From positions 310,001-374,000 of the forward strand of contig NZ_JAIGNM010000002.1 of NCBI RefSeq assembly GCF_019711495.1: DNA of 64,000 nt, given 5' to 3'. The DNA comes from Qipengyuania xiamenensis. Its GTDB lineage: Bacteria; Pseudomonadota; Alphaproteobacteria; Sphingomonadales; Sphingomonadaceae. Under the pieces are notes generated by a model that saw only the letters and a list, made by a program, of their open reading frames with translations, did no database searches and was not told where the DNA came from. This document shows, in pieces, positions 24,083-57,755 of the stretch. The position numbers were made by a program, and so were the translations under genes. The number at the start of each line of letters is the position of its first letter. Position 1 is the first letter of the stretch.

Positions 24083-24098
24083 GAGCCGCTGCGCCCCG

Positions 24099-31275: not shown

Positions 31276-31284
31276 GAACACAGC

Positions 31285-34464: not shown

Positions 34465-34501
34465 GATCGGCGAGAACCCGCCGAAAAGCAGGCTTGGGCA
34501 T

Positions 34502-34510
34502 TGTGGATAA
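34502..34510 (-). promoter_or_regulatory. DnaA box upstream of ftsZ
   Basis: The minus strand reads TTATCCACA, a perfect 9-mer DnaA box, 92 bases before the ftsZ ATG. In Caulobacter DnaA directly activates ftsZ transcription. A GANTC methylation motif (GAATC, 34534-34538) lies 24 bases downstream. Confidence 0.6.
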
Positions 34511-34601
34511 AGGCATTTAACCTTTGCATGGGTGAATCGCTTTGTGCCAAAAGGCGTAGTGACAGGCTTCGGCCGAATTTTATTCCCAAAGGGACCAGTA
34601 A

Positions 34602-40793: not shown

Positions 40794-41762
40794 GTGAGCC
40801 GAAATGCCACCCAATCTATCCGTGTCGCGGCAATCGCCGCGGCTCTTGCTGCAATCGCAGCCTGTGCTCCGCCGCCTCCCCCACCGCCGCCTCCTCCGCC
40901 GCCGCCACCGCCGCCTCCGGCCGTAGTCATTCCGCCGCGTCCGACGCCTCCGAGCGGCGCGACCACCAGCATGACGATCCCGATGGTTGCCGCTTCCGGC
41001 GTGCGCCAGACGGTGAATGCCAACCTCACCCCGGCGCAGACGACCTGGAACCTGCGCAGCGCCCTGAATGTCGCTGCGCTCAACTGCCAGTCGCCCGAGT
41101 ATGCATCTCTGGTGGATAATTATTCCGCCAAGCTGCGCATCCATGCACGCGAGCTGTCGGCGACCAATCGCGCGCTGCAGGCCGAATTCCGCCAGCGCTA
41201 CGGCGCGACCTATCGCGACGTGCAGGATTCCTACATGACGCAGGTCTACAACTACTTCGCGCTTCCGCCGGCGAAGAAGCAGTTCTGCGATGTCGCAAAT
41301 GCCATCGGTGCCGAAGTGGTCGGCGTCGCACCCGGGGACCTCGAGGTTTTCGCTGCGACCGCGCTTCCCCGTATCGAGGCCGTTTTCGAGGACTTCTTCC
41401 GCGCTTACGAACAATACCGCATCGACCTGAATGCGTGGGATTCCCAGTACGGCCCGCCCACCGTCACGACGACGGTCCAGGGCTATACCAACCCGCTCGA
41501 TCCTTCCGTCGAAGTAGAGCCGGGCGAAACGCTGGTCGGCACGATGCCTGCCACCGCACCCGTCAGCGCCGCTGGCGAACCGCAAGCGCCCGTCGATATC
41601 CCGCCCGCGACCGAGCAGACCCCCGTGGTGGTTGCGACCGATCAGGTGGATGCCGATGGCAACGCGGTCGTGACGCTGCCGACCGAGGGTCCGATCTTCC
41701 AGTCGGGCGAAGTGGTGCAGGGCCAGCCCACGGCTGACGATACGCCCGACCCGCAAAGCTGA
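40794..41762 (+). CDS. polyproline lipoprotein of unknown function
   Basis: This 322-residue lipoprotein (lipobox AIAAC, Cys24) carries 17 consecutive prolines right after Cys-Ala, which would form a stiff polyproline-II stalk near the membrane. The middle (about 75-235) is a helical domain (NLRSALNVAALNC, LSATNRALQAEFRQRYG) with paired cysteines and no recognised family. The C-terminal 90 residues are acidic and Pro/Thr-rich, probably disordered. The start is GTG with AGGAGG upstream. Ribosome stalling on the run would need EF-P. Confidence 0.8.
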   Translation: MSRNATQSIRVAAIAAALAAIAACAPPPPPPPPPPPPPPPPPAVVIPPRPTPPSGATTSMTIPMVAASGVRQTVNANLTPAQTTWNLRSALNVAALNCQSPEYASLVDNYSAKLRIHARELSATNRALQAEFRQRYGATYRDVQDSYMTQVYNYFALPPAKKQFCDVANAIGAEVVGVAPGDLEVFAATALPRIEAVFEDFFRAYEQYRIDLNAWDSQYGPPTVTTTVQGYTNPLDPSVEVEPGETLVGTMPATAPVSAAGEPQAPVDIPPATEQTPVVVATDQVDADGNAVVTLPTEGPIFQSGEVVQGQPTADDTPDPQS

Positions 41763-41817: not shown

Positions 41818-43314
41818 TCAGACGGGCGTGTAATCCGGAAAATTGCCAGCACAGGCCGTCAGCATGGCGCGGGTCGCATCGACATCGGCCGCCTCGATAC
41901 CGGCGGGGAGGGGCTGGAGCTTCTCCTGAGGAGGAAAGGCGCCGTAGCCTGCGAAAAGGCACAGCCAGCTCATCGACGAATAGGCCGGGTTCTCGCCATT
42001 AGTGGCGCGATTGGTCTCGGCCATGTCCTTGTGCGTGAACCAGCCCGTCACCATGGCCTTGAGGCCATCGGGCAGGACATCGTTTGTCGCGTTCTCGCGC
42101 CAGTATTCGGTGTCCGAGCGCCGGTTCATCCGGTAATGCGCCACGATGTAGTCGCGGATCCCGTCGTAACGCGAGGCGACGCGCCGGTTGAACGTGTCGC
42201 GGTGCTGCGCGGTGAAGCCGCCGACCTCGTAGGCCTTGGCGAAGTCGAGCGCGGTAAAGATCACGATATGCAGCGCGGTCGCCTCGAGCGGTTCGATAAA
42301 GCCTTGCGAGAGCCCGGCCGCGAGGCAGTTCCGCGTCCAGCTGTTCTCGACGCGGCCCACCTTCATGCTCAGAAAGCGCGCTTGTGTGTCCTCGCCCGTG
42401 GTGCCGATGGCCTCGCGAAGCTCTGCCTCCGCCTCTTCGTCGGTGATATGGCGCGAGGAATAGACGTAGCCGTTACCGACCCGCGTCGTCAGCGGGATCG
42501 ACCAGCGCCAGCCAGCTTTCATCGCGATGGCGTCGGTTTGCGGGCGCGGCGTCTGGTGATGCGGTGTAGGCATGACCACGGCGCGGTCGTTGAACAGGTT
42601 CTCGCCGAAGGAGAGGAACTTCGCGCCCAGCTTCTGCTGCGCGAGCACTGAAGCGAAGCCGGAACAGTCGACGAAGAAATCGCCCTCGATCCGCTCGCCT
42701 CCTTCGCACAGCAGGGCAGCGATGTCCCCGTCGTCGCGCAGTTCGACATCATCCACCTTGAGCGGACGATGCTCGACCCCGCGCGCTGTCGCCCATTCGC
42801 GCAGGAAACCGCCCAGCTTGTGCGCATCGAAATGATAGCCGTAGCTCGGGCCGAAGGGGAATGTATCGCCCGGCTGCGGCGCCTTGCCACCGTCGGCCAG
42901 CACGCTTGCGAGGAACCAGTCGTCGGGATGGGCGGGCACATCGATCCCGCGCCGCCGCAGCGCGCAATTATGCGCAAAACCCGGCTCGCTATGCAGGTCG
43001 ATCGGGCCGGGGAAGGGATGGAAGTAGCTCTCGGAGCCTTCGACCTCGCTCCAGCCGGTGAACCGGATGCCGAGCTTGTAGGTGGCGTCGCAGGCGCCCA
43101 TCCATTCGCTCTCCTCGATACCGAGGTGATCGAAGAATGCCTTGAGCTGCGGTGTCGAGCCTTCACCGACCCCGATGATGCCGATCGCGGGGCTCTCGAC
43201 CACGGTGACCTTGCCGCCACGCTCACCCCATTCCCTGTGCAGCAGGCAGGCCGTGATCCAGCCCGCACTGCCGCCGCCGAGGACGACGACATGGGGAAGG
43301 GCGGGCTCAGTCAC
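41818..43314 (-). CDS. flavin-dependent tryptophan halogenase-like protein (distal copy)
   Basis: The 498-residue FAD-dependent enzyme has GGGSAGW (13-19) for FAD, Lys80 in TYKLGIRF (the lysine that guides hypohalous acid in PrnA), the WRWSIP motif (269-274) typical of halogenases, and EPLE (341-344; the catalytic glutamate region). The active-site set is therefore complete. It is the last of the overlapping run after the TonB receptor, with its start overlapping the GH97 gene by four bases. Related enzymes in TonB-receptor loci halogenate free indole in vitro; no flavin reductase partner is in the window, and the true substrate is unknown. Confidence 0.9.
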   Translation of the reverse strand: MTEPALPHVVVLGGGSAGWITACLLHREWGERGGKVTVVESPAIGIIGVGEGSTPQLKAFFDHLGIEESEWMGACDATYKLGIRFTGWSEVEGSESYFHPFPGPIDLHSEPGFAHNCALRRRGIDVPAHPDDWFLASVLADGGKAPQPGDTFPFGPSYGYHFDAHKLGGFLREWATARGVEHRPLKVDDVELRDDGDIAALLCEGGERIEGDFFVDCSGFASVLAQQKLGAKFLSFGENLFNDRAVVMPTPHHQTPRPQTDAIAMKAGWRWSIPLTTRVGNGYVYSSRHITDEEAEAELREAIGTTGEDTQARFLSMKVGRVENSWTRNCLAAGLSQGFIEPLEATALHIVIFTALDFAKAYEVGGFTAQHRDTFNRRVASRYDGIRDYIVAHYRMNRRSDTEYWRENATNDVLPDGLKAMVTGWFTHKDMAETNRATNGENPAYSSMSWLCLFAGYGAFPPQEKLQPLPAGIEAADVDATRAMLTACAGNFPDYTPV

Positions 43315-45344
43315 CCCTGCGGCACGAGCTCGATCGCGAAACCGCCTGCTGGCGCAATGCGCAGGTCGAGCGTCTGGTCGGACGTCACGGTGCGGGTTTC
43401 GACCTCCATGGCATGGCGGTCTTCGCCCTGGCCGTCTGCAGTCGCGCCGTCACGCCAGATCGTGGCGCGATAGCTCTTGCCTGGATCGAGGAACGACAGC
43501 GGCACGCTGACATTGCGCTCGGCCTCGTCGGTGACGGCACCCACGTACCAGTTGAGCGTGTTGCGATCGCGGCGGGCGATGACGGCGAACTCGCCCACGG
43601 CCCCGTCAACCAGCATGCTTTCCGCCCAGTCGGCCGGAACCCGCTTCACGAAGTCGAGCGCGCGCGGGTATTTGACGAGGTTTTCGGGCAGGTCGGCGAC
43701 CATCTGGATCGGCGAATAGATCGTGACGTAGAATGCCAGCTGGCGCGCGAGCGTGCTCGGCAGGTCGGGTGCGGTCGCGCCGCGTCCCTCGAGCGAGAAG
43801 ACGCCCGGCGTATAGTCCATCGGGCCCGACAGCAGGCGAGTGAAGATCAGTTCGGGCACGTGGCCGGGATCGTTCTTCGGTTCCGCCCAGGCATCGTATT
43901 CCGCACCGCGGGCGCCTTCGCGACTAACCCAGTTGGGGTAGGTACGCCTGAGGCCGGTATCCTTGATGGGCTCGTGCGGATTCATCGCGATCTGGTGCTC
44001 GGCTGCTTCTTTCACGACCTTGAGGTGGTGGCGGACCATTTCCTGCCCGTCGTGCCAGACGTATGTCTCGCCCCAGCCGCCTTCGCCGGCAGGTGCGATT
44101 ACGCCGCCCGCATCGGCGACATAGCCGCTCTTCACAGCATCGATGCCGAGGTCCTGGTAAAAGGCCATCGCGTCTTCGAGCTGTTCCTCGTAGACTTTGA
44201 TATTGCCGCCGGTTTCGTGGTGGCCGATGATCTTCACGCCCTTTTCCTCGGCGTAGCGGGCCAGTTCGGCGATATCGAAATCGGGATAGGCTTCGGTGAA
44301 GCTGAACTCGCCGCCATTGCCGAACCAGTTGCCGTCCCAGCCGACGTTCCAGCCTTCGATCAGCACACCGCGGAAACCGTGTTCGGCGGCGAAATCGATG
44401 TATTTCTTGGCGTTTTCGGTGGTGGCGCCGTGCTTCTCGCCGCTCGCCCAGCTCTCGATATCGAGATGCATGCCCCACCAGATGCCGATGTATTTGTGCG
44501 GGGTGAACCAGCTGACATCGCCCAGCTTGTTGGGCTCGTTAAGGTTGAGGATCAGGTCGCTCTCGAACAGACCCTTGGGGTTCGAGCTGATCTGGATCGT
44601 GCGCCACGGAGTGGTGAAGGCGCCTTCGCGCACCACCTTCGCGCCGCGCGGGCTCGGGGCCAGCTGCGCGCGCAGCCGCGTGCCATTGATCCGCTTCAGC
44701 CACATGCCCGAATAATCGACCAGCGCTGCTTCGTGGAAAGAGAGATGCGTGCCGTTCTGCAGCACCATGGTGACGGGTGTGTGCACCGTCGAGAGCGCGC
44801 TGATCGGGGTCTTCTCGTAGAGATATTCGTAGCGGTTCCAGTCGCCCGCCGGGATCGACCATGCGGTACCGTCGCTGGCGATGTTGAACTCGGTCAGTTC
44901 GTCCGCAATGTTGTAGAAACGCTGCTGCGGATTGTCGGGGAATTCGGTGCGGAAACCGATCCCGTCGTCGAAGACGCGCAGGCGGACGGTGATCTCGCGC
45001 GCGGCCTCGTCCTTCTGGCGGAACGTGAGGGCCAGTTCGTTATGGCTGTCGATCACCCACTGCTGTTCGCCCCAGGGCTGTTCCCAGGTGCTGCTGTGCG
45101 CCTGTTCGCGGAAGGCCACGACTTCGAAATTGCGGCGCATCGGATCGGCATCGGTGAAATTGAAGCCGATATTCGACTTGGTGATGATCGGCACGCCGTC
45201 ACGGGTGACTTCGTAATAGGGAATGCCTTCGCCGTCGGCATCGAGCGTCACCTTGATACGTCCGTCGGGCGAGGCCACCGTTTCCGCCTGCGCAGCGGAC
45301 AGCGGGAGGAGGGCGGCACCAAGAAGCAGAGCAAGGCGGGTCAT
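43311..45344 (-). CDS. GH97 alpha-glucosidase (exported)
   Basis: The 677-residue enzyme starts with a signal peptide (about 1-20, AQA before E). The N-terminal beta-sandwich is followed by a barrel with three glutamates equivalent to those of the inverting SusB type: Glu377 (HHETGG), Glu458 (NPHEPIKDTG) and Glu476 (VSREGARG). This suggests an inverting alpha-glucosidase acting on maltooligosaccharides in the periplasm. It is linked by four-base overlaps to the GH13 gene upstream and the halogenase gene downstream. Confidence 0.93.
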   Translation of the reverse strand: MTRLALLLGAALLPLSAAQAETVASPDGRIKVTLDADGEGIPYYEVTRDGVPIITKSNIGFNFTDADPMRRNFEVVAFREQAHSSTWEQPWGEQQWVIDSHNELALTFRQKDEAAREITVRLRVFDDGIGFRTEFPDNPQQRFYNIADELTEFNIASDGTAWSIPAGDWNRYEYLYEKTPISALSTVHTPVTMVLQNGTHLSFHEAALVDYSGMWLKRINGTRLRAQLAPSPRGAKVVREGAFTTPWRTIQISSNPKGLFESDLILNLNEPNKLGDVSWFTPHKYIGIWWGMHLDIESWASGEKHGATTENAKKYIDFAAEHGFRGVLIEGWNVGWDGNWFGNGGEFSFTEAYPDFDIAELARYAEEKGVKIIGHHETGGNIKVYEEQLEDAMAFYQDLGIDAVKSGYVADAGGVIAPAGEGGWGETYVWHDGQEMVRHHLKVVKEAAEHQIAMNPHEPIKDTGLRRTYPNWVSREGARGAEYDAWAEPKNDPGHVPELIFTRLLSGPMDYTPGVFSLEGRGATAPDLPSTLARQLAFYVTIYSPIQMVADLPENLVKYPRALDFVKRVPADWAESMLVDGAVGEFAVIARRDRNTLNWYVGAVTDEAERNVSVPLSFLDPGKSYRATIWRDGATADGQGEDRHAMEVETRTVTSDQTLDLRIAPAGGFAIELVPQG

Positions 45345-46942
45345 TCGGAAATCTCCGTTATGATGGCGGCAAAGGCCGGCAATTCGCTTTGGCTCGCGCC
45401 ATTGATAGCCATCAGAACTTCGCCTTGGCAATGCTCTGTCGCCAGAGTGTCCCTGCCGAGATTGAAGCGGCACTCGACGCGCTGGCCATCGGCCTCGCGC
45501 GTCACGACCAGCAGATCACCGTCATGTCGGCAGCTGGTCACAGCACCGTGGCGCAGCGCCGGATTGTCCTTGCGGAGCGCGATTGCGGTGCGCGTGAAGG
45601 ACAGTAGGGAGTCCTTGTCCCGCAGCTGCAGTTCGACCGGGCGCGAGCGATTTTCCTCGCCCACTGGCAACCACGGTTCCTTGCTGCCGAAACCTGCGCA
45701 TTCGGTCTGGTTCCACGGCATCGGGGTGCGGGCACCGTCACGGCTTAGGGTCAGCGGCCAGTTGGCGATGGCTTCGGGATCGTGGAGCTGGTCGAAAGGA
45801 ATATCGACCTGCGTCAGGCCCAGTTCCTCGCCGTAATAGAAGATCGCATTGCCGCGCAGGCTGACGAGCAGTAGCGTCTTGAGGCGGGCAAAATCCTCAC
45901 GGTCTTCGGGCTTGCACCAGCGGCTGAGCGCGCGCGGTGCATCGTGGTTCTCGAACGCCCAGCTCGGCCAGCCGATGTCCATGTCGTCGGGCCATTCGGC
46001 GAGCGAACCACACACGAGCTGCGCGGTAAGCGCTTCAGCGTAGAGGAAGTTGAAGCTGTAGGCCGAATTGAGGTGGTTCTCACCGGCCGTGAACAGGCGC
46101 ATTTCGCGCATGGCGTCATCGCCGCCGACCTCGGCCACGGTGAAGATGTCGTCATACTCGTCGGTCAGCGCGCGGATACGCTCGATGAAGGCCGGGATGT
46201 CGGCATGGCCCTGGTTGAACTTCTTGATCTGGAAGTCGAAGGGCCGCGTACGCTGCTTGTCGGTAGCCGGGGCGGGCGGATTATCGCGCAGCTCCGGATC
46301 GTGCATCGCGAAGTTGAGCGCATCGATGCGGAAGCCGTCGACGCCGCGTTCGAGCCAGAAACGCATAACGTCCAGCACTGCGTCCTGCACCTGCAGATTG
46401 TGGAGGTTCATCTGCGGCTGCGAATTGAGGAAATTGTGCAGGTAATACTGGCCGCGGCGCGCGTCCCACGTCCATGCGGGGCCACCGAAGACCGATTGCC
46501 AGTTCGACGGTGGTGAACCGTCAGGCTTCGCATCGGCCCAGACATACCAGTCCGCTTTCGGATTATCCTTGCTCGAACGGCTTTCCTCGAACCAGGCGTG
46601 CTCGTCGGAGGTGTGCGAATAGACCTGGTCGATCAGGACCTTGAGGCCGAGTTCGTGTGCCCGGGCGATGAGATCGTCGAAGTCCGAGAGGTCGCCGAAG
46701 ATCGGATCGACTTCGCGATAGTCGGATACGTCGTAGCCGAAGTCTTTCATCGGCGACTTGAAGAAGGGACTGATCCAGATGGCGTCGATGCCGAGGTCTG
46801 CCACGTGGGGCAGCTTTTCGGTGATGCCCGGAAGGTCGCCGATGCCGTCGCCGTTGGAATCGCGGAAGCTGCGCGGATAGATCTGGTAGATCGTCGCACC
46901 CTTCCACCAAGGGAGGCTTAAGGTTTCGGTCGCCGAGCTCAT
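45341..46942 (-). CDS. GH13 alpha-glucosidase (cytosolic)
   Basis: The 533-residue enzyme has no signal peptide. The GH13 conserved regions are QVYSH (region I variant), GFRIDALN with nucleophile Asp207, VAEVGG with acid/base Glu271 and FENHDAP with Asp334. YQIYPRSFRDSNGDG at the N-terminus is typical of alpha-glucosidases (GH13 subfamily 23-type oligo-1,6/alpha-1,4 enzymes). It probably hydrolyses sugars imported by the GPH transporter. The start is the ATG at MSSATETL, which overlaps the upstream gene's stop. Confidence 0.92.
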   Translation of the reverse strand: MSSATETLSLPWWKGATIYQIYPRSFRDSNGDGIGDLPGITEKLPHVADLGIDAIWISPFFKSPMKDFGYDVSDYREVDPIFGDLSDFDDLIARAHELGLKVLIDQVYSHTSDEHAWFEESRSSKDNPKADWYVWADAKPDGSPPSNWQSVFGGPAWTWDARRGQYYLHNFLNSQPQMNLHNLQVQDAVLDVMRFWLERGVDGFRIDALNFAMHDPELRDNPPAPATDKQRTRPFDFQIKKFNQGHADIPAFIERIRALTDEYDDIFTVAEVGGDDAMREMRLFTAGENHLNSAYSFNFLYAEALTAQLVCGSLAEWPDDMDIGWPSWAFENHDAPRALSRWCKPEDREDFARLKTLLLVSLRGNAIFYYGEELGLTQVDIPFDQLHDPEAIANWPLTLSRDGARTPMPWNQTECAGFGSKEPWLPVGEENRSRPVELQLRDKDSLLSFTRTAIALRKDNPALRHGAVTSCRHDGDLLVVTREADGQRVECRFNLGRDTLATEHCQGEVLMAINGASQSELPAFAAIITEISE

Positions 46943-48780
46943 TCGGCGCGCTCCGACACGCGGCACACCGCCCAGCCGAAGGCGGGGAGGGTGAAGGCTG
47001 CGCTGCCGGGTGCCGAGACCGCAGAGGGGCAGGTGCCGGCAAGCGTCTCGAAGCTGCGCGCATCATAGCCAAGCGCTATGTTCGCACTCTGGCTTTTTCC
47101 GCTGGTGTTGAAGGCCAGCAAATACTCGCGCCCGTCTTCGGGATCGAAGCGGCTGGCGGCGAAGATGCCTGCTTCCTGGCCGTAATGGCGCACCACCTGC
47201 CTGCCTTTCGACAGCGCATTGTGAGCGCGGCGCACCTGCGAAAGCTCGGCGATCAGGCGATAGAGCGGATGGGCGGTGTCGAAGTTGCTGACCGCAGTGG
47301 TCGCTTCGGTGCCGATCAGCGTGTTGTCGTTGTAGCTGTCGGTGCGGCTGGGGAACATGTCCTCTCGCGCGGCCTGATCGTTGCCGTCGCCCACGAAGCC
47401 CTGTTCGGCGCCGTAGTAGATCACCGGCGAGCCGCGCAGCGTCAGCAGCATGGCATGGGCAAGCTTGGTGCGGGCCAGCATCTCGTCTGCGCCCATGTCC
47501 TCGTTGTCCCACCGCAGCATGGTCGTGAAGCGGCCCATGTCGTGGTTGCCCAGGAAAGTCGGCATACCGAGAGCGGCTTCCTCGCCGCCTTCGTAGAGCA
47601 CGTCGCCATCGAACAGTTCGTTGAGGATGTAGGTGCCCTTGTTCTGGCTCACGACTTCGCGAATGCCCTGCTGGAAGGCGAAGTCGAGCACGGCTGGGAA
47701 GCCGTCGCGGCGGGTGTACTGCGCGATATATCCATTGTCGTGATCGTCACGGTAAACTTCGCCGAAGATATGGAAGTTCGGAATACCCGCCTCGCGCGCC
47801 GTGGCCAGCATCGCGGGTACGAATTCTTGCCAGAACTCGGGGTTCACATGGCGCGCGGTGTCGACGCGGAAACCGTCGATGCCGGTATCGCGAATCCAGC
47901 CCGCGTAGATGTCGATCATGCCTTCGACCACGCGCGGGTGCTCCGTGAACAGATCGTCGAGCCCTACGAAGTCGCCTTGGCGGCTGCTTTCGCCGGTGAA
48001 AGTCGTGTCCCCGCGATTGTGGTAGTAGATCGGGTCGTTGAGCCAGGCTGGGACCTTCACGTCCCGTTCGGCGGCCGGAACCACCGGCGTATAGGCGTAG
48101 GACGGATCGGTCAGCTTGGCGAAGTTCTCTGCGCTGCGATCTTCGTCGCCCATGAAACCGTCATTGATTGCCGGACCATCGACGCCGCCCTTGCGCGAAT
48201 AGGGGAAGTCCCCCTTGCTGCGATAGGCATAACCGGTTGCGTCGCCTTCCGCATAGCGGATCACGTCGGCGGTGTGGTTGGTGATGATGTCCATATAGAC
48301 CTTCATCCCGCGCGCATGGGCCGCGTCCACGAAGGCCCTGAATTCCGCGCGGCTGCCGAAGTGGCCGTCGGGGCGAGTGAAATCGGTGACCCAATAGCCG
48401 TGATAACCCGCGCTCTCATTGCCTTTGGGGCCCTGCACCGGCTTGTTCTGGAAAATCGGCGCGAACCAGATCGCGGTGATGCCAAGGCCTTCGAGATAGT
48501 CGAGCCGCTGGGTCAGGCCGGCAAGGTCGCCGCCGTGGAAGAAGCCCTTGTGGGTCGGGTCGAAGCCATGCTGCAGCGGTCCGCCGGTAAAGTCTCCAAG
48601 GTCGTTCGAGGTGTCGCCATTCTCGAAGCGGTCTGGAAGGACGAAGTAGACGATCTCTTCCGAAGGTGCGCGATCGCGGAACGAGGGCTCACCTGCAGTG
48701 GCCTCGGGCGGAGGTGTCTGCGCATGGGCACAGGCGGCTGTTGCGAGCGCCAGCAGGGGCAGGGCTGTGCGGAATTTCAT
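46939..48780 (-). CDS. exported GH13 alpha-amylase-type enzyme
   Basis: The 613-residue protein has an N-terminal export signal, either SPI (AHA before Q) or a weak lipobox (ATAAC, Cys17). The GH13 catalytic regions are present: DIITNHT, GFRVDTARH (nucleophile Asp), IFGEVY (acid/base Glu) and GNHDMGRF. IVYFVLPDRFENGD at the N-terminus is typical of extracytoplasmic alpha-amylases. It should cut maltodextrins in the periplasm or on the surface. Start and stop each overlap a neighbour by four bases. Confidence 0.92.
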   Translation of the reverse strand: MKFRTALPLLALATAACAHAQTPPPEATAGEPSFRDRAPSEEIVYFVLPDRFENGDTSNDLGDFTGGPLQHGFDPTHKGFFHGGDLAGLTQRLDYLEGLGITAIWFAPIFQNKPVQGPKGNESAGYHGYWVTDFTRPDGHFGSRAEFRAFVDAAHARGMKVYMDIITNHTADVIRYAEGDATGYAYRSKGDFPYSRKGGVDGPAINDGFMGDEDRSAENFAKLTDPSYAYTPVVPAAERDVKVPAWLNDPIYYHNRGDTTFTGESSRQGDFVGLDDLFTEHPRVVEGMIDIYAGWIRDTGIDGFRVDTARHVNPEFWQEFVPAMLATAREAGIPNFHIFGEVYRDDHDNGYIAQYTRRDGFPAVLDFAFQQGIREVVSQNKGTYILNELFDGDVLYEGGEEAALGMPTFLGNHDMGRFTTMLRWDNEDMGADEMLARTKLAHAMLLTLRGSPVIYYGAEQGFVGDGNDQAAREDMFPSRTDSYNDNTLIGTEATTAVSNFDTAHPLYRLIAELSQVRRAHNALSKGRQVVRHYGQEAGIFAASRFDPEDGREYLLAFNTSGKSQSANIALGYDARSFETLAGTCPSAVSAPGSAAFTLPAFGWAVCRVSERAE

Positions 48781-50282
48781 GCGACACTCTCCTTCGCGCG
48801 CACCTGCGACACCAGTTTCCCGAGCACTTCGACGTGCTGCGGCATGGCGTTCGCGGCGCGAACCATCTGTTCTTCTGTATTGGCGAGCAGGCCGATAAGC
48901 TCGTTTTCCGGCAAGGCATCGGCGAGCGGATTGTAGCCTTCGGTCTCGACACCCTGTCCTGCGAGCACCTGGAACCACGCCACTTCGGTGAACAGCTCCT
49001 CGTGTTCACGGTGGATGTGTCCGTTCGCGCGCCACTGCTCCAGCTTGGCGGAAAGGGTTTCGGGCAGTTCGAGCGCGCGCATCGCGTCCCAGAACGGCTG
49101 GCCCTCGCGGCCATTGGCCCAGTAATGCAGCACGAGGAAATCGCGGATACGCGTCCACTCGAAGTCTGCCTGCGCGTTGAAATGGTCGACCAGCGCAGGG
49201 GCAGGGCGGCCTTCGCCCAGCAGGTTCAGCAGCCGGGCGAGCGCGCTCTGGACGAGATGGATGCTGGTCGATTCCAGCGGCTCCATGAAACCGGCGGCAA
49301 GGCCCAGGGCCATGCAGTTTCCGACCCATTGGCGGCGGCGCTTGCCGGTGGTGAACTTGAGGACGCGGGTGTCGCCATCCGCTTCGCCATCGAGATTGGC
49401 GAGCAGCGTGCTGGCGGCCTCGTCTTCCGAGATATGCGCGCTGGAAAAGACATAGCCATTGCCGATCCGGTGCTGGAGCGGGATGCGCCACTGCCAACCG
49501 GCATCGCGGGCGATGGAACGGGTATAGGGCGTGAAATCGCCGCCGCCACTGCAAGGCACCGCAACCGCGCGGTCGCAGGGCAGGAGGGCGGACCAGTCGT
49601 CGAACCCGGCCTCCATCGCGCCTTCGATCAGAAGCGCGCGAAAACCGGTGCAGTCGATGAAGAAATCGGCCTCGATGCGGCGCTCGCTATCGAGGGCCAG
49701 AGCGGTGATGTCTCCGTTTTCGGCATCGCGATCGACGCTTTCGATCAGGCCCTCGGTGCGCGTGACGCCGCGTGCCTCGGCCATGCGGCGCAGATAAGCC
49801 GCGTAGAGAGTGGCGTCGAAATGATAGGCGTAAGGAAGTTCGGGGCCACTTGGTCCGGGCATGCGCAGGGCGCGGGCCGCGATCTCGTTGAGCGAATAGT
49901 GGTCCAGCGTCCGTGCGTGGCCGAGCTTCTTCGCTCTCAGCCAGTGCTGGTGGAACGGCAGTACTCCAGCAGCCCGGCCAACCTGGCCGAAGGCATGCAT
50001 GTAGCTGTGCCCGTCACCCATCCAGCCATCGAAGGCGATGCCCAGCTTGAAGCTGCCCTTGGTCTCGCGGAGGAACTCGCCCTCGTCGATGCCAAGCGCC
50101 TGGTTGAAATGGCGGATCTGGGGGATTGTCGCTTCACCGACACCCACGGTGCCGATGGTTTCGCTCTCGACCAGTTCGATATCGAAATGGGCCGGAGCAA
50201 AGCGGGCGAGCAACGCGGCTGCCATCCATCCGGCGGTTCCACCGCCTGCAATGGCAATTCGGAAGGGTTTCTGCTCGCTCAC
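48777..50282 (-). CDS. flavin-dependent tryptophan halogenase-like protein (proximal copy)
   Basis: This 501-residue FAD enzyme has AGGGTAGW near the N-terminus, Lys79 in SFKLGIAF (the position of the PrnA lysine), WQWRIP (263-268) and EPLEST (334-339) around the catalytic glutamate, so all core residues are present. The GTG at 50282 is preferred over one at 50291 because GAGGTG lies 6 bases before it. It is the first gene after the TonB receptor, 100 bases downstream, and overlaps the secreted GH13 gene by four bases. It differs clearly from the distal halogenase, so the pair is not a recent duplication. Confidence 0.9.
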   Translation of the reverse strand: MSEQKPFRIAIAGGGTAGWMAAALLARFAPAHFDIELVESETIGTVGVGEATIPQIRHFNQALGIDEGEFLRETKGSFKLGIAFDGWMGDGHSYMHAFGQVGRAAGVLPFHQHWLRAKKLGHARTLDHYSLNEIAARALRMPGPSGPELPYAYHFDATLYAAYLRRMAEARGVTRTEGLIESVDRDAENGDITALALDSERRIEADFFIDCTGFRALLIEGAMEAGFDDWSALLPCDRAVAVPCSGGGDFTPYTRSIARDAGWQWRIPLQHRIGNGYVFSSAHISEDEAASTLLANLDGEADGDTRVLKFTTGKRRRQWVGNCMALGLAAGFMEPLESTSIHLVQSALARLLNLLGEGRPAPALVDHFNAQADFEWTRIRDFLVLHYWANGREGQPFWDAMRALELPETLSAKLEQWRANGHIHREHEELFTEVAWFQVLAGQGVETEGYNPLADALPENELIGLLANTEEQMVRAANAMPQHVEVLGKLVSQVRAKESVA

Positions 50283-50345
50283 AATGGTCACCTCACCGCT
50301 TCAGGAGCGGTCCGGTTTAGCTGCAAGTTCATGGGTTCCAAGGGT

Positions 50346-50373
50346 GGCCGGGCGATCTTGCGAGCGCCCGGCC
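50346..50373 (-). terminator. intercistronic hairpin after the TonB receptor gene
   Basis: A perfect 9-bp stem GGCCGGGCG/CGCCCGGCC with a 10-base loop lies 10 bases past the receptor stop. There is no U-tract, so it is more likely an mRNA-stability or partial-termination element. Confidence 0.5.
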
Positions 50374-50382
50374 GGGAGGAAC

Positions 50383-53172
50383 TTAGAACTTGTAGGTGAA
50401 GCCCGCGAGGAAGCGACGACCATATTCCTGGTAGTCGATGACCGCGCGCGGTTCGGGGACGTTGAACTGCGACACGAACGGCGCGTTCGTCAGGTTCTGT
50501 CCCTGCACGTAGACCGACAGGCCTTCCAGTGCGCTGCCCGGCTGGAATTCATAGCCGATCTGCGCGTCGACGATGGTCTCGTCACGGGCAAGGCGACGCG
50601 TGGGCGAACCACCGAAGCCGGTGAAGTCGGCAAGGAATTCCGAGCGATAGCGGACACTACCACGGGCGCTGAAGCCGTTCAGGTCATAGTAGAGCGTGCC
50701 GTTCGCAACCCACTTCGAATAGCCGGGGATCTGATCGATGTTGCCGTTGGCGTCTTCGATCTTGGTCTTGGTGTAGCCGACACCGCCGGTAACGCCGAAG
50801 CCGTTCAGCGCTTCGGTGAAAGTGTCGAAGGGGATCGTTGCCGAAAGTTCGGCGCCGTAGAAGTCGCCACCGCCGGTGTTCACCTCGGAGTCGAGGTAAC
50901 CGATGGTCGTGGCGGGCGTCTGGCCGGCCGGGACCGGGAAGGCGGCATAGTCGAAGACGACGCGCGATCCGTCGATGTAGCTCACGAGATCCTTGTAGAA
51001 GACCTGCGCTGCCACAACGCCTGCACCTCCGGCGAAGTACTTCTCGATGTTGAAGTCGATCGCGTTCGCACGATACGGACGCAGGAGCGGGTTACCGCCG
51101 CCGCCGCTGATGAAGGGTACAAGGCCGGTAGGACTGTCAGCCTGGTTGTTATTGATGCCGTAGCTGATCGCGACACGCAGGTCGTCGAGCTGCGGGCGCT
51201 GGATCTGGCGGCTTGCAGCCAGACGGAAGACCCAGCCGCTGTCCAGACGGAGCGAGAGGTTGGCGCTCGGCAGGACGTCCCAGAAGTTATCGCCAAGCGA
51301 GAGATCGACCCGTTGATCCGGAGTGCCCGGGTCGTTGTCGAGGTCGACGAACGCCAGGCCGGTCGAATTCTGTTCGGTATTGATGGCCTGCACACCGAAG
51401 TTACCGGTGATTTCGCCACCGCCGATATCCTGCTGGACGTCGAACTGGAGGTAGGCGGTCATCAGCTTTTCGGTGATGCCATACGCCTTGGCCGGGATGT
51501 CGTTCGACGTGTTCGGATCGAGCACCAGCGTGCCGTCGGCAATCAGCTCACGCACGTCGTAGCTGACGATCGGGCCGAGGCCGAGATAGCCAAGGTCGGT
51601 CGAACGAAGCAGGGCGCCCGAAGGAATCGCGACTTCGGTCGCGCCGCCAGCGGGCGAGACGAAGAATTCGTCCGGCGTAAGGCTCTTGGCGCGGTCGGTA
51701 TAGGCGAGGCCGAAATTGACGCCGGAGATGAAGCTGTCGATCTCCTTGCCGACACCGAGACGGTACTGGAACAGCTCGTCGTCGATGATGCGGTTGTTGT
51801 AGTAACCTGCCTGAACGCGGCTGCCACCCCATCCGAGCGGGTCGGTCAGGACGATCAGGTTCGGGTCCGAATAGTCGAGCGTCGGGCTGAAGCTGGTGCC
51901 CTGCGTGTTCGAGATGAAGCCGATGGTATCGGTTGCGCCGACACCGGCGCCGTAACCGGTGCCCGAATAGCTTTCGATGCTCAGTTCCTCGCGATCGGTA
52001 CGCGAGTATCCGAAGTCGAGGAACGCGCTCCAGCCGTCGTCACCCTGGTAATCGAGGTTGAGGCCGCCCGAATAGAGGTCTGCCTGGCGCTGGAACACGT
52101 CGTTACGCACGACGCCTTCGACGTTCTCGAATGTGCCGGCCTCTGCGAAGCCACCGAAGGGACCATCTACGACCGTCGCAGTCGACGGATCGAAAGTCGT
52201 ACCGAAAGCGCCGAAGCCGAGCGGAAGCTCGATGCCGCGCTTGGACTGGTCATCGTCGAAGTTCGAATAGAAGCCGTCGAGCGTGACCATCAAATTGGGA
52301 TTGGCTTCCCACTGGAACGTACCGTTCACACCGAAGCGCTTGAGCTGGGTCGAGGTGACAAAGCTCTTGTTGCCGCCGATGACGAAGGGGCTGCCAGGTT
52401 CACCATTGCCCGCATAGCCCCAGGCGTTGAATTCCTGCAGCTGGTAGGGCTCGTCCGTATAGGCAGCCGAAAGCGCGAGGCCGACGGTGTCGTCGGCGAA
52501 CTGGTCCACAAAGGTCGCGTTGACGCGATAGCCGAATTCCTTCGAACCGGCGTTCAGCGCGCCGAGGTCGGCGTAGCTACCCTTGGCGCCGATCGCGAGG
52601 ATGCTTTCGCTCGCTTCCAGCGGACGAACCGTGCGTACGTCGACCGTACCGACGAGGCCCTGACCGACAAGGCTGGCCGTCGGGCTCTTGTAGACGACGA
52701 CTTGGTTCACGACTTCCGACGGATACTGGTCGAATTCGACGGCGCGGTTGTCACCGGTCGAGGTCTGTTCGCGGCCGTTGAGCAGCGTCTGCGAGAAATC
52801 GGGGCCAAGGCCGCGGATGGCGATGACATTGGCACGGCCGTTGAGGCGCTGCGAGGTCACGCCGGGCAGGCGGGCGATCGATTCACCGATCGAATCGTCG
52901 GGCAGCTTGCCGATGTCTTCGGCAGTCACCGATTCAAGGATTTGGTCGCTGCGGCGCTTTTCTGCGACGGCGGTCGCCAGCGATTCACGGAAGCCGCTGA
53001 CCACGATGACCGAGGATTCGTCTTCCTCGTCGGCCACGGGCTGGCCTTCTTCGGTGACGTCCGGAGTTTCGGGCTGGGTGCCCTGCGCCGAAGCCACGGT
53101 CGGAAGGCCGCCGACCAATGCCAGCGCCACGGCCGACGCGCTGACGCCGGTAAGATGCTTGCGGAATGCCAT
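50383..53172 (-). CDS. TonB-dependent outer-membrane receptor for alpha-glucan
   Basis: The 929-residue protein has a signal peptide (about 1-29, ASA before Q), a TonB-box-like VIVVSGF, a plug domain (ESVTAEDIGKLPDDS through LVGQGLVGTVDVRTV) and a long 22-strand barrel ending in aromatic FTYKF. This is the type used for maltodextrin-like carbohydrate uptake in Caulobacter and sphingomonads (MalA-like). The start MAFRKHL has GGAGAGGATT upstream. The promoter shares a divergent control region with the lacI gene. Confidence 0.93.
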   Translation of the reverse strand: MAFRKHLTGVSASAVALALVGGLPTVASAQGTQPETPDVTEEGQPVADEEDESSVIVVSGFRESLATAVAEKRRSDQILESVTAEDIGKLPDDSIGESIARLPGVTSQRLNGRANVIAIRGLGPDFSQTLLNGREQTSTGDNRAVEFDQYPSEVVNQVVVYKSPTASLVGQGLVGTVDVRTVRPLEASESILAIGAKGSYADLGALNAGSKEFGYRVNATFVDQFADDTVGLALSAAYTDEPYQLQEFNAWGYAGNGEPGSPFVIGGNKSFVTSTQLKRFGVNGTFQWEANPNLMVTLDGFYSNFDDDQSKRGIELPLGFGAFGTTFDPSTATVVDGPFGGFAEAGTFENVEGVVRNDVFQRQADLYSGGLNLDYQGDDGWSAFLDFGYSRTDREELSIESYSGTGYGAGVGATDTIGFISNTQGTSFSPTLDYSDPNLIVLTDPLGWGGSRVQAGYYNNRIIDDELFQYRLGVGKEIDSFISGVNFGLAYTDRAKSLTPDEFFVSPAGGATEVAIPSGALLRSTDLGYLGLGPIVSYDVRELIADGTLVLDPNTSNDIPAKAYGITEKLMTAYLQFDVQQDIGGGEITGNFGVQAINTEQNSTGLAFVDLDNDPGTPDQRVDLSLGDNFWDVLPSANLSLRLDSGWVFRLAASRQIQRPQLDDLRVAISYGINNNQADSPTGLVPFISGGGGNPLLRPYRANAIDFNIEKYFAGGAGVVAAQVFYKDLVSYIDGSRVVFDYAAFPVPAGQTPATTIGYLDSEVNTGGGDFYGAELSATIPFDTFTEALNGFGVTGGVGYTKTKIEDANGNIDQIPGYSKWVANGTLYYDLNGFSARGSVRYRSEFLADFTGFGGSPTRRLARDETIVDAQIGYEFQPGSALEGLSVYVQGQNLTNAPFVSQFNVPEPRAVIDYQEYGRRFLAGFTYKF

Positions 53173-53510: not shown

Positions 53511-54548
53511 ATGGGACGCAAGCCGACCGGTCGGCCCACGAGTTTCGACATTGCCTATGCGGCGGGCGTTTCACAGCCGACGGTCAGCCGTGCCCTGCGC
53601 GGTGACCGTTCGGTCAGCGAAAAGACGCGTGAGAAGATCAAGCAGATCGCGCGTGATCTCAATTACACCGTCGACAAGAATGCATCCTCCCTGCGCTCTC
53701 AGCGGTCGAACACGATCGCGCTATTGTTCTTCGAGGATCCGACCCCCGACGAGAGCATGATCAACCCCTTCTTCCTCGCGATGCTGGGCTCGATCACCAA
53801 GGCCACGGCGGACGAGGGGCTCGACCTGCTCATCTCCTTCCAGCGCATGGAAGACGACTGGCACGTGAGGTACCAGGACAGCCACCGCGCCGACGGCCTG
53901 ATCCTGCTCGGCTATGGCGATTACACGCAATATCGCGAGCGGATGGACCAGCTTTCGCGGCAGGGTACCCATGTCGCGCGCTGGGGTTCGGTGTCGAGCG
54001 ACAGCAGCGGGGTGACCGTGGGCACGGACAATGTGCAGGCGGGGCGGCTTGCGGGCGAACATCTTGTCGAGCAAGGGCGTCGCAAGATCGCCTTCCTCGG
54101 TCATGCCGACGAACACTATCCCGAGTTCAACGGTCGCTATCGCGGTCTGGTCTCGGCTCTTGCCGATGCCGGTATCGAGGCGGACGAAGGTCTCCAGTTC
54201 GATGCGCTGACTACAGAGGAAGAAGGATTCTCCGCCGCCCGCTCGCTGATCGAAAGCGGGAGGGAATTCGATGCCATCTTCGCTGCCAGCGACCTGATCG
54301 CGATCGGCGCGATGCGTGCGCTTGCCGAAGCGGGGCGCAGCGTGCCGGAAGATGTCGCCATCGTCGGCTTCGACGATATTCCCGCAGCGAGCATGACCAC
54401 ACCTCCGCTCACCACGGTGATGCAGGACATCAAGCGCGCAGGGCAGGTGCTGGTCGAGGCGCTGCTGGCCCAGATCGAAGGTCGCGACCTGCCGCCGCGC
54501 AAGCTGCCCGGCAAATTGATCGTTCGTGGAAGCAGCGTAACCTCCTAA
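53511..54548 (+). CDS. LacI-family transcriptional regulator
   Basis: The 345-residue repressor has an N-terminal helix-turn-helix (FDIAYAAGVSQPTVSRAL) and hinge helix, and a periplasmic-binding-protein-like C-domain (NTIALLFFEDPTPDE, ADGLILLGYG, GRRKIAFLGH, VAIVGFDDIP). The start at MGRKPTG has GGGGAGGAAGC just upstream. It is divergent from the TonB receptor and upstream of the GPH transporter, so it probably controls the alpha-glucan genes through the palindromes in the control region. The effector is presumably maltose or a derivative. Confidence 0.93.
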   Translation: MGRKPTGRPTSFDIAYAAGVSQPTVSRALRGDRSVSEKTREKIKQIARDLNYTVDKNASSLRSQRSNTIALLFFEDPTPDESMINPFFLAMLGSITKATADEGLDLLISFQRMEDDWHVRYQDSHRADGLILLGYGDYTQYRERMDQLSRQGTHVARWGSVSSDSSGVTVGTDNVQAGRLAGEHLVEQGRRKIAFLGHADEHYPEFNGRYRGLVSALADAGIEADEGLQFDALTTEEEGFSAARSLIESGREFDAIFAASDLIAIGAMRALAEAGRSVPEDVAIVGFDDIPAASMTTPPLTTVMQDIKRAGQVLVEALLAQIEGRDLPPRKLPGKLIVRGSSVTS

Positions 54549-54648: not shown

Positions 54649-56181
54649 ATGGACGCGACTTTGCGCGAGAAGCCCCGCCAGAGCTGGGCCGGACTGTGGA
54701 ACATCAGCTTCGGCTTTTTCGGCATCCAGATCGGCTTTGCGCTGCAGAACGCCAATATGAGCCGCGTCTTCCAGACGCTCGGCGCGAGCATGGACGATTT
54801 GCCCGCCTTGTGGGTCGCAGCGCCGCTCACCGGCCTCATCGTGCAGCCGATCATCGGTCACCTTTCGGACAAGACCTGGAACCGGCTCGGTCGCCGCCGT
54901 CCCTACTTCCTGACGGGAGCGATTTTTGCGGCATTGGCGCTCTTCTTCATGCCGCTCAGTCCTGCATTCGGGGCGCCTCTGCTCTTCGCGGCGGCCATGC
55001 TGTGGGTCCTCGATGCCTCACTCAACGTGTCGATGGAGCCGTTCCGCGCCTTTGTCGGCGACATGCTGAGGACCGATCAGCATAGCGCCGGCTATGCCGT
55101 GCAGACTGCCTTCATCGGTGCAGGCGCGGTCGTGGGATCGATCTTCCCCTATTTCCTCGAGCAGATGGGCGTCGCGAATGTCGCTGCAGGCGGCGGTATT
55201 CCCGATACGGTCAAATACAGCTTCTGGTTTGGTGCCTTCGCGCTGTTCACGGCGGTCATGTGGACCATCGTGACCACCAAGGAGTTTTCGCCGGAAGAAA
55301 TGGCAGCATTCGGAGAACAAGCCGAAGCCGATACCGCACAGCCGATCCGCGCGCTGGCGGCGAAGACCTATCTTTCCAGTGCCGTCTGGATAGCTGCCGG
55401 TCTCGTGGTCGTACTGGTCGTGCAATCGCTCGAGCTTCAGAAGGAAATGCTGCTGCTCGGCGCGCTGTTGGCTGTCTATGGCCTGCTCAGTGCCATTGCG
55501 ATCTCGATGGCGAAGAAGGGGCAGGCGGCCAACATGCTCTCCAGCATCGTCGGCGATTTCGCTGGTATGCCCGACGTCATGAAGCGCCTCGCGCTGGTGC
55601 AGTTCTTCAGCTGGTCTGCGCTCTTCATCATGTGGATCAACACCACCCCGGTGGTCACCCAATATGTCTTCGGGAGCAGCGACACGGCGAGTGCCGCCTA
55701 TAACGAGGGCGCAAACTGGGTGAACCTGCTCTTCACCGTCTACAATGGCGTGGCCGCCATCGCTGCTCTCGCGCTGCTTCCGGTGCTGAGCCGCAAGGTC
55801 GGGCAAGTCATGACCCATTCGATCTGCCTGACGCTGGGCGCGCTCGGCTTCCTTATGTTCTTTTTCGTGCGCGACGCGAACACGCTGCTGCTGGCCGAGG
55901 TCGGCATCGGCATCGCATGGGCCAGTATCCTTGCCATGCCTTACGCAATCCTCGCCTCGAACCTGCCGCAGGCAAAGCTCGGCATCTACATGGGGCTGTT
56001 CAACGTCTTCATCGTTGTCCCGCAGCTACTGGTAGCGACCGTGATGGGGCAGATCATGCTGTGGCTGTTCCCGGGCGAGCCCATCTGGACGATGCTCTTC
56101 GCCGCAGCCGCATGGCTGATCGCCGCGCTATCCATGCTCCGGGTGAAGGCAGCCATCCCGCAGGAGAACGTCCATGCGTGA
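54649..56181 (+). CDS. GPH/MFS-type sugar transporter
   Basis: The 510-residue protein has about 12 membrane helices and SDKTWNRLGRRRPYF, the signature loop between helices 2 and 3 of glycoside-pentoside-hexuronide symporters. The likely substrate is maltose or short maltodextrins, by analogy with sphingomonad and Xanthomonas loci. Its last eight bases overlap the next gene. Confidence 0.9.
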   Translation: MDATLREKPRQSWAGLWNISFGFFGIQIGFALQNANMSRVFQTLGASMDDLPALWVAAPLTGLIVQPIIGHLSDKTWNRLGRRRPYFLTGAIFAALALFFMPLSPAFGAPLLFAAAMLWVLDASLNVSMEPFRAFVGDMLRTDQHSAGYAVQTAFIGAGAVVGSIFPYFLEQMGVANVAAGGGIPDTVKYSFWFGAFALFTAVMWTIVTTKEFSPEEMAAFGEQAEADTAQPIRALAAKTYLSSAVWIAAGLVVVLVVQSLELQKEMLLLGALLAVYGLLSAIAISMAKKGQAANMLSSIVGDFAGMPDVMKRLALVQFFSWSALFIMWINTTPVVTQYVFGSSDTASAAYNEGANWVNLLFTVYNGVAAIAALALLPVLSRKVGQVMTHSICLTLGALGFLMFFFVRDANTLLLAEVGIGIAWASILAMPYAILASNLPQAKLGIYMGLFNVFIVVPQLLVATVMGQIMLWLFPGEPIWTMLFAAAAWLIAALSMLRVKAAIPQENVHA

Positions 56182-57577
56182 GCTGATCGCAGCAACTGCC
56201 GCCTTCGCACTTGCAGGCGGGGCATACGCCATGAGCGGTACTGCCGACGAACCGGAAGAAACTGGATGGGCCTCGGACAGCAAGGTCACCATCGAGCATC
56301 CCGAATGGTCGCGCGATGCCGTGCTCTACCAGATCAACACCCGCCACTTCACCGAGGAAGGCACCTTCAAGGCTGCGCAGGAAGAACTGCCGCGCCTCAA
56401 GGAACTGGGCGTAGACATTCTCTGGCTGATGCCGATCCACCCGATCGGAGCTGAAAACCGCAAGGGCACGCTGGGCAGCCCCTATTCTGTCCAGGACTAT
56501 TACGGCGTGAACCCCGAATTCGGGACCGAGGAAGACTTCCGTGCCTTCGTCCATGCGGCGCATGCACAGGGTTTCAAGGTCATCCTCGATCTCGTCGCCA
56601 ACCACACCGCGTGGGACAACGCGCTCGCGAAGGAACATCCCGACTGGTACGAAAAGGACTGGAAGGGCGACTTCCGCCCTACGCCGTGGTGGGACTGGTC
56701 CGACATCATCGACCTCGACTGGTCTAAGCCCGGCGTGCGCGAGCATGTCGGCGGAGCGATGGAATACTGGGTCCGCGAATTCGACGTGGATGGCTACCGC
56801 GCCGACGTGGCGGGATACGTCCCGCTCGACTTCTGGGAAACCGCGCGCGCAAGGCTCGATGCGATCAAGCCGGTCTTCTTGCTCGGCGAAGTCCAGCAGA
56901 GCGGTTTCCACCACGCGGCCTTCGACGCGACCTATGCCTGGGACTGGCACAACACGACCAAGAACGTCGCGCAGGGCAAGGGCAACGCCACCAACTTCTA
57001 TGGCTACTATGCCGAGAATGAGAGTCTCTGGCCGCGCGAGGCGATGCGCATGACCTATATCGAGAACCACGACAGCAATGCGTGGGAAGGCACGATGGAG
57101 GAGAATTACGGCGCTGCGCTCGAGGCGATGACCGCGCTGTCCTTCACCGGCGAGGGCCTGCCGCTCATCCATAACGGGATGGAGGCTTGCAACGCCAAGC
57201 GGCTCGAGTTCTTCGAGCGCGATCCGATCGACTGGCAACAGGACGAGAATTGCGGGTACGGCGACCTGCTTGCCCGGCTGATCGCCTTCCGCAAGGCCAA
57301 TCCCGCGCTCGAAAACGGGCAGTGGGGCGCGGTGATGCACAAGGTCGAAAGCTCCGCCCCCGAGCAACTCTTCGCTTGGGTGAGGCAGGAGGACGGCAAC
57401 AAGGTGCTCGGCCTGTTCAACATGAGCGACCGTCCCCTCGTGGCGACATTCTCTGACGACCTCCCGGTCGGCGATTATACCGATTTCGCCGACGGCAGCG
57501 CTGTGACCATCGAAAGCGGCGACCGCGTCGAACTGCCTGCCTGGGGCTACCGCCTCCTGAGCAGCACCGCGCAGTAG
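56174..57577 (+). CDS. exported GH13 alpha-amylase-type enzyme
   Basis: The 467-residue protein has a signal peptide (about 1-19) and the GH13 regions [16 protein letters not shown] (nucleophile Asp), LLGEVQ (acid/base Glu) and IENHDSN. It is smaller than the GH13 enzymes of the minus-strand operon. It lies downstream of the GPH transporter with an eight-base overlap, so both are one operon. It should act on maltooligosaccharides in the periplasm. Confidence 0.92.
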
Positions 57578-57593
57578 CGCTGCCCATACGATT

Positions 57594-57646
57594 GCAGGCG
57601 CACAAAAGGCGCGGGGGTACCCCGCCTGCGCCATTGTGCTGCCTGC
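57594..57646 (+). terminator. large nested hairpin between amylase and cysD
   Basis: A 12-bp outer stem (57594-57605 with 57634-57646, one bulged T) encloses a second 5-bp GGCGC/GCGCC stem and a GGGGTACCCC palindrome. It follows the amylase stop by 16 bases. There is no U-tract, so it could terminate or protect the upstream mRNA, or be a cysD leader structure. Confidence 0.5.
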
Positions 57647-57755
57647 CAACTTCTCCTATCGGGCTCGCGACCTTTCGCTGCTTGCCGGCGATAGAAGTGC
57701 GCGCCACAAGGTCGTCTCTCCGGCACGCCAGAACAGAACCCGTAAAGAGACCCTA

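What the first reader, a model, noticed from the sequence alone, without database searches (positions are those of the whole stretch)
41818..50282. Two complete flavin-dependent halogenases built into an alpha-glucan utilisation operon
Seen: two different halogenase-like genes, each with the FAD motif, the PrnA-type lysine (Lys79/Lys80), WxWxIP and the catalytic-glutamate stretch, flank three glycosidase genes and overlap them by four bases. Known: halogenase-like genes recur next to TonB receptors in Caulobacter and Xanthomonas, and one such enzyme (BrvH) brominates free indole in vitro. Inference: their natural substrate may be connected to the sugar or receptor system, or they may not halogenate at all. 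No flavin reductase is in the window.
Basis: partly seen in the sequence, partly recalled or inferred. Interest (0 to 1): 0.7.

Follow-up and report, generated by a model that had tools for sequence, protein, structure and literature searches.

The report
Halogenase pair tied to sugar receptors
A predicted alpha-glucan uptake operon carries two halogenase genes with intact catalytic residues, and most of the related halogenase loci examined lie near the same class of outer-membrane receptor, so the enzymes likely modify something tied to the receptor rather than the sugar.

Summary
Hal1 (48777-50291) and Hal2 (41818-43314) are full-length PF04820 proteins with PrnA's catalytic Lys79 and Glu346. 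They bracket GH13, GH13 and GH97 genes; all four junctions are 4-base overlaps. Upstream lie a TonB receptor and a divergent LacI/MFS/GH13 unit.

The link is real and wide. Outside the order, 40 of 46 listed halogenases lie within 4 kb of a TIGR01782 receptor, against 1.4 expected; inside it, 69 of 91 windows do. Linkage follows receptor phylogeny: 10 changes against 47 shuffled. Receptors without a halogenase also sit among glycosidases, in a different mix. So the halogenase seems to go with the receptor clade, not with sugar use as such. SapC and Cupin_8 genes often join.

The genome's one PF01613 flavin reductase lies 41 bases from a third receptor-linked halogenase.

Best mechanism, inferred: cytosolic FADH2-dependent halogenation of an aromatic residue in the receptor precursor or a partner peptide. 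Against it: no Trp is shared by all linked receptors, and Hal1 hardly follows a receptor swap. The substrate remains unknown.

The parts
50383..53172 (-). TonB-dependent receptor, TIGR01782 (TonB-Xanth-Caul); ATG start with signal-peptide-like N-terminus (by eye)
   Evidence: NCBIfam 518.9 bits, cut-off 310; Plug and beta-barrel Pfam domains; start 53172
50292..50382 (-). Receptor-Hal1 spacer with a strong GC-rich stem-loop just after the receptor stop codon (possible differential-expression hairpin)
   Evidence: MFE -38 kcal/mol, z -3.66, 0 of 200 shuffles as low (folded with the stop codon); a comparable hairpin is printed for each of the 16 related loci L004-L019, with differing sequences (read by eye, no shuffle control)
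48777..50291 (-). Hal1, flavin-dependent halogenase of the BrvH/Xcc4156/9luq group; K82, E340, S341; no signal peptide seen by eye
   Evidence: PF04820 599.8 bits; best PDB relatives 9luq, 6y1w, 6frl; residues
46939..48780 (-). GH13 alpha-amylase-family enzyme with signal-peptide-like start, ATGA overlap with Hal1
   Evidence: PF00128 210.7 bits; junction
45341..46942 (-). GH13 alpha-glucosidase-like enzyme, no signal peptide seen by eye, ATGA overlap
   Evidence: PF00128 418.6 bits; junction
43311..45344 (-). GH97 glycosidase with signal-peptide-like start, ATGA overlap
   Evidence: PF10566, PF14508, PF14509; junction
41818..43314 (-). Hal2, second flavin-dependent halogenase, K80, E344, A345 (Ser to Ala beside the catalytic Glu); GTGA overlap with GH97
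53511..54548 (+). LacI-family regulator (start at MGRKPTGRP inferred)
   Evidence: PF00356, PF13377
54649..56181 (+). MFS sugar transporter
   Evidence: PF07690, PF13347; GPH_sucrose below cut-off
56174..57577 (+). Further GH13 enzyme, overlapping the transporter gene
   Evidence: PF00128 117.1 bits

Best explanation
Two halogenase genes with intact catalytic Lys and Glu overlap the glycosidase genes of one TonB-receptor operon by four bases each, and their enzymes likely halogenate an aromatic side chain of a protein or peptide tied to that receptor. Inferred steps: the operon is induced by alpha-glucan through LacI; the receptor is made in excess of the enzymes (hairpin after its stop codon); Hal1 and Hal2, in which I see no signal peptide, act in the cytosol with FADH2 supplied in trans, probably by the genome's one PF01613 reductase; they place Br or Cl on an exposed Trp (or Tyr) of the unfolded receptor precursor or of a receptor-associated polypeptide through open active sites. 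Shown: gene order, overlaps, catalytic residues, receptor-clade linkage. Not shown: halogenation, substrate, halide, timing.
For: Catalytic residues intact in both window proteins and in nearly all A- and B-type relatives. Receptor linkage: 40 of 46 outside the order within 4 kb, 1.4 expected from receptor density; 69 of 91 windows in the order. The label follows receptor phylogeny, 10 changes against 47.1 shuffled, 0 of 500 as low. Receptors without a halogenase are also in glycosidase loci, so glycosidase context alone does not predict the halogenase. Hal1's nearest solved relatives include BrvH and Xcc4156, open-site enzymes that refuse free tryptophan; their authors suggest a peptide substrate (PMC7336383 passages; PMC5945002 passages and section 23). 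Region-1 loops: Hal1 56, Hal2 60, BrvH 62, Xcc4156 56, Th-Hal 79 residues. SapC and/or Cupin_8 (the latter a family that I recall includes protein hydroxylases) lies within 2.5 kb of 26 of 86 linked receptors; of 60 control windows one holds Cupin_8, at 2.8 kb, and none SapC. A pseudo-halogenase clade lies directly beside an A-type halogenase on the same strand in 10 of 10 cases, as an adaptor for a large substrate might. The genome's only PF01613 reductase lies 41 bases from a receptor-linked halogenase.
Against: No Trp column is shared by all linked receptors: the best reaches 0.70 weighted, and it is missing in the window's own receptor type. Trp is richer in linked receptors (1.36% against 1.02%) but not significantly over 7 independent pairs. 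Hal1-receptor partial correlation is 0.30, no more than receptor-GH13 at 0.33. Between the two receptor types of 13 loci the receptor differs by a residual of 0.464, Hal1 by 0.067 (p 0.083), the secreted GH13 by 0.036 (p 0.009): Hal1 hardly follows the swap. 21 of 91 windows have neither a TIGR01782 receptor within 4 kb nor SapC/Cupin_8 within 2.5 kb; B-type halogenases are within 4 kb of a receptor in 20 of 42 cases only. The reductase neighbour is confined to one genus, 2 of 91 windows.
Confidence: 0.35

Rival explanations
1. The halogenases make a diffusible halogenated small molecule (such as a bromoindole) when sugar is sensed, as a signal or against competitors, and sit in receptor loci to be co-induced with feeding.
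For: BrvH brominates free indole at C3, with low activity (PMC5945002, section 23). No signal peptides seen by eye. Tandem halogenases are common (27 of 91 windows).
Against: In a clustering of neighbour ORFs the recurrent families that I identified were receptor, SapC, Cupin_8, glycosidases, regulators and transporters, no biosynthetic family; not every cluster was annotated. A signal role does not explain why glycosidase loci with other receptor clades lack halogenases.
Confidence: 0.25
2. They act on the imported ligand or an aromatic part of it inside the cell.
For: Genes are co-directional with sugar-degrading enzymes and overlap them. The glycosidase mix differs between linked and control loci.
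Against: Alpha-glucans have no aromatic ring, yet this operon holds two halogenases. Halogenases are found with varied glycosidases (GH3, GH13/97, fucosidase/GH31, trehalase-like).
Confidence: 0.1
3. They no longer halogenate and work as flavin-dependent hydroxylases or redox sensors.
For: Hal2 has Ala for the Ser beside the catalytic Glu, as do 17 of 17 glucan-operon orthologs. A related clade has lost the Lys in 10 of 10. BrvH's measured activity is low (PMC5945002, section 23).
Against: Lys is kept in 101 of 101 A-type and 54 of 55 B-type proteins; replacing it abolishes BrvH activity (PMC5945002, section 23).
Confidence: 0.15

Closest known systems
BrvH (6frl), Xcc4156 (6y1w) and 9luq (Pseudoalteromonas): halogenases of the open-site indole group (9luq placed by sequence only)
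   Same: Hal1 aligns over nearly its whole length at 405-469 bits, with the catalytic Lys, Glu and Ser; its region-1 loop is as short as theirs, and region 2 equals BrvH's. brvH also has a neighbouring halogenase gene (PMC5945002, section 23).
   Different: Hal1's gene overlaps a glycosidase gene in a receptor operon; the word TonB does not occur in the main texts of the BrvH and Xcc4156 papers.
PyrH, SttH, AbeH, Th-Hal: free Trp 5/6-halogenases
   Different: Hal2's region 1 is 60 against 79 residues in Th-Hal; the Ser beside the catalytic Glu is Ala; it sits in a receptor operon. Xcc4156 ties with them in Z (44.7).
CUT loci (carbohydrate utilisation with TonB receptor), including the Caulobacter mal locus
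   Same: Receptor, inner-membrane transporter, degradative enzymes and sugar-type regulator together (PMC1790865, passages read).
   Different: That paper's main text does not contain the word halogenase; here two halogenases belong to the unit.
MibH, lanthipeptide Trp halogenase (5uao)
   Same: Precedent for halogenating Trp inside a peptide (PMC7336383, PMC5945002 passages).

Membership tests
Flavin-dependent tryptophan-halogenase family (PF04820) | Family profile above the curated cut-off over the full length | tested here: met
   599.8 and 424.8 bits, cut-off 21; profile 1-458 and 2-448 of 458
Flavin-dependent tryptophan-halogenase family (PF04820) | FAD motif, catalytic Lys (PrnA K79), WxWxIP, catalytic Glu (PrnA E346) | tested here: met
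Flavin-dependent tryptophan-halogenase family (PF04820) | Ser beside the catalytic Glu (PrnA S347; its importance is recalled) | tested here: inconclusive
   Hal1 Ser341; Hal2 Ala345. B-type proteins have Ala in 32 of 55
Flavin-dependent tryptophan-halogenase family (PF04820) | Halogenating activity with FADH2 | not testable with these tools
   Needs purified enzyme
Free-tryptophan halogenases | Region-1 or region-2 loop closing over tryptophan | tested here: inconclusive
   Lengths only. Hal1: region 1 56, region 2 35 residues, as BrvH (62, 35). Hal2: region 1 60 (short), region 2 42 (Th-Hal 79, 41). Hal1 was not modelled
Open-site indole halogenases (BrvH/Xcc4156 group) | Closest sequence relatives and short loops in both regions | tested here: met
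   Hal1 only. Hal2 does not meet it: its best sequence relatives are Trp 5/6-halogenases
CUT locus | TonB receptor with degradative enzymes, inner-membrane transporter and sugar-type regulator | tested here: met
CUT locus | Induction by its carbohydrate | not testable with these tools
   Needs expression data

The most novel reading that the evidence does not exclude
Many Proteobacteria halogenate their own outer-membrane nutrient receptors, or a peptide bound to them: a cytosolic set of halogenases, pseudo-halogenase adaptors, a JmjC-like cupin and SapC finishes the receptor chain before export, and this is the missing natural role of the BrvH/Xcc-type enzymes.
Probability: 0.22. Interest if true: 0.92.

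Novelty: new variant of a known kind. Interest (0 to 1): 0.6.

Why it matters
The native substrates of BrvH and the Xanthomonas halogenases are stated to be unknown in PMC7336383 (passage). The receptor linkage narrows the search from 'some indole' to 'something that travels with TIGR01782 receptors', and this can be checked by proteomics of induced cells. If a receptor or its partner proves halogenated, that would be a new kind of outer-membrane protein modification as far as I know (recalled, not searched), and a source of enzymes that label large substrates.

Tried and rejected
Receptor target residue: columns of 147 receptors compared by halogenase label under two alignments; no universal Trp. 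Trp content: strongest of ten residues tested without phylogeny, not significant over independent pairs.

Co-evolution of Hal1 with the receptor: not above neighbouring genes; receptor swap hardly followed.

Linked flavin reductase as a general rule: only 2 of 91 windows, one genus. A first attempt used a wrong reading frame as seed and was repeated.

Hal2's structural neighbours do not decide its substrate class: Trp-halogenases and Xcc4156 tie in Z.

In print: seven searches joining halogenase with TonB, SapC, cupin, carbohydrate, Caulobacter or Xanthomonas terms listed no paper whose title or abstract start describes the link. Of those hits I opened only PMC11337851 and PMC1790865 (passages); the others were seen as listings. 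One search listed structure, family-analysis and review papers, mostly TonB-transport papers. The library holds open-licence papers only.

Full report
What is there. On the minus strand, in order: TonB receptor (50383-53172), a 91-nt spacer, Hal1 (48777-50291), GH13 (46939-48780), GH13 (45341-46942), GH97 (43311-45344), Hal2 (41818-43314). Divergently: LacI (about 53511-54548), MFS transporter (54649-56181), GH13 (56174-57577). Each junction from Hal1 to Hal2 is a 4-base overlap (three ATGA, one GTGA), which suggests translational coupling. The spacer folds into a strong hairpin (z -3.66), and the 16 related loci L004-L019 each print a comparable one (by eye). The closest named relatives are Erythrobacteraceae.

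Are they halogenases? Both pass PF04820 far above cut-off. Along the printed PrnA alignment the conserved Lys and second Glu are K79 and E346 (positions counted by me). I split 166 rows of at least 380 residues, the two window proteins included, by score into A-type (101), B-type (55) and degenerate (10). Lys and Glu are kept in 101 of 101 A-type; Lys in 54 of 55 (one gap) and Glu in 55 of 55 B-type; Lys in 0 of 10 degenerate. Hal2 is B-type and has Ala for the Ser beside the catalytic Glu, as do 17 of 17 rows of the glucan-operon clade (window included), one clade with local support 99. Loop lengths copied from printed alignments place Hal1 with the open-site enzymes; Hal2 is mixed: short region 1, Th-Hal-like region 2. 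A model of Hal2 (pLDDT 92.1) matches Trp-halogenases and Xcc4156 about equally. A search for Hal2 relatives scored 7,997 candidates, of which 7,770 passed E 1e-20; 120 were listed.

Is the receptor link real? In the window's genome 3 of 3 halogenases sit in a receptor locus (Hal2 about 7 kb from the receptor, at the operon's end), and both receptors over the TIGR01782 cut-off (2 of 11 matches) have a halogenase beside them. In 60 Sphingomonadales genomes, 40 have a PF04820 match over cut-off. From the listing I kept 139 rows of at least 80 bits (31 genomes), dropping the weaker listed rows; the tool left further matches unlisted. They form 91 windows, three of which overlap a neighbour. 69 of 91 have a receptor within 4 kb of a halogenase, one more has SapC only, 21 have neither. 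Some of the 21 hold weaker receptor-like ORFs. By type, leaving out genes at window edges: A 69 of 84, B 20 of 42, degenerate 5 of 10 within 4 kb. Coordinates alone gave 99 of 139 within 5 kb, scoring at most 12 receptor candidates per genome. Outside the order, 46 listed halogenases of at least 298 bits in 16 genomes: 40 within 4 kb, 1.4 expected from receptor density; other classes only, 38 of 41 in 12 genomes. The phylum search scored at most seven halogenase candidates per genome, so it is not a census.

Receptor or sugar? Of 150 listed receptors over cut-off, 80 lie more than 10 kb from any listed halogenase; I fetched 60 of these as controls. On a tree of 147 receptors (86 with a halogenase within 2.5 kb, 61 without) the label needs 10 changes, against 47.1 for shuffled labels, 0 of 500 as low. 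The linked receptors were chosen through their halogenases, 16 of them through Hal1 itself, which adds near relatives. The longest neighbour gene was scanned for 58 of 60 control windows and 63 of 67 linked windows. Glycosidases appear in both: controls GH43 (4), GH2 (4), melibiase (3), GH92 (2), GH13 (2), single GH3 and GH97; linked GH3 (10), GH13 (7), GH97 (5) and others. The mix differs, so a ligand effect is not excluded, but glycosidase context alone does not predict a halogenase. Among 86 linked receptors, 26 have SapC and/or Cupin_8 within 2.5 kb (13 both, 11 SapC, 2 Cupin_8); among 60 control windows one has Cupin_8, 2.8 kb away, and none SapC.

Flavin supply. PF01613 has one match in the genome, 41 bases from the third halogenase and on its strand. 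The same arrangement is in the congener G042 and in no other of the 91 windows. Reductases of other families were not searched. Supply in trans is inference.

Mechanism. The enzymes look cytosolic (by eye, no signal-peptide program); the receptor passes through the cytosol unfolded (general knowledge). Open-site relatives refuse free Trp, and their authors suggested peptides (PMC5945002 section 23 and passages, PMC7336383 passages). The module travels with a receptor class and with a cupin family that I recall to include protein hydroxylases. I therefore favour halogenation of an aromatic side chain in the receptor precursor or a partner peptide. Results against are real: no shared Trp, no excess co-evolution, Hal1 nearly unchanged across a receptor swap, Trp enrichment not significant over independent pairs. 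Hence 0.35.

Literature. BrvH halogenates indole, prefers bromide and has a second halogenase gene beside it (PMC5945002, section 23). PMC8269204 (passages) places BrvH and the Xcc enzymes apart from Trp halogenases. PMC1790865 (passages) defines CUT loci and mentions the mal locus, without the word halogenase. PMC7142613 (passages) on sphingomonad receptors also lacks it. PMC11337851 (passages) speculates that a halogenase may affect virus-host receptor redox, a different setting.

Noticed in passing
L032:7513-10694 (G000 contig C1): The only PF01613 flavin reductase of the genome lies 41 bases from a third receptor-linked halogenase, followed by nitronate monooxygenase and acyl-CoA dehydrogenase genes.
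   Followed up: partly
L035, L041, L046, L050, L051, L067, L072, L086, L106, L111: A clade of pseudo-halogenases without the catalytic Lys (10 of 10) lies directly beside an A-type halogenase on the same strand in each case, 7 of 10 with a 4-base overlap.
   Followed up: partly
L007, L008, L010-L013, L018, L019 against L004-L006, L009: The same operon carries one of two receptors: 40-43% identical to the window's in the first set, 76-97% in the second, while the first set's other operon genes are 59-93% identical. Receptor replacement in place.
   Followed up: yes
27 of 91 windows, for example L067 and L086 (four genes each): Tandem halogenase genes less than 300 bases apart.
   Followed up: partly
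L062, L085, L097, L103: B-type halogenases without a receptor, near what look like murA and hisG genes (names recalled from sequence), in four genomes.
   Followed up: no
L048:8531-10813: Halogenase ORF of 760 codons with about 250 residues before the halogenase domain; the start codon may be misplaced.
   Followed up: no
window 21150-36398: Cell-wall and division genes (four Mur ligases, FtsZ) on one side of the operon, cysD and cysNC at 57636-60571 on the other.
   Followed up: no
window 40794-41762: ORF of 322 codons with a long poly-proline run after a lipoprotein-like start, no Pfam match, convergent with Hal2.
   Followed up: no
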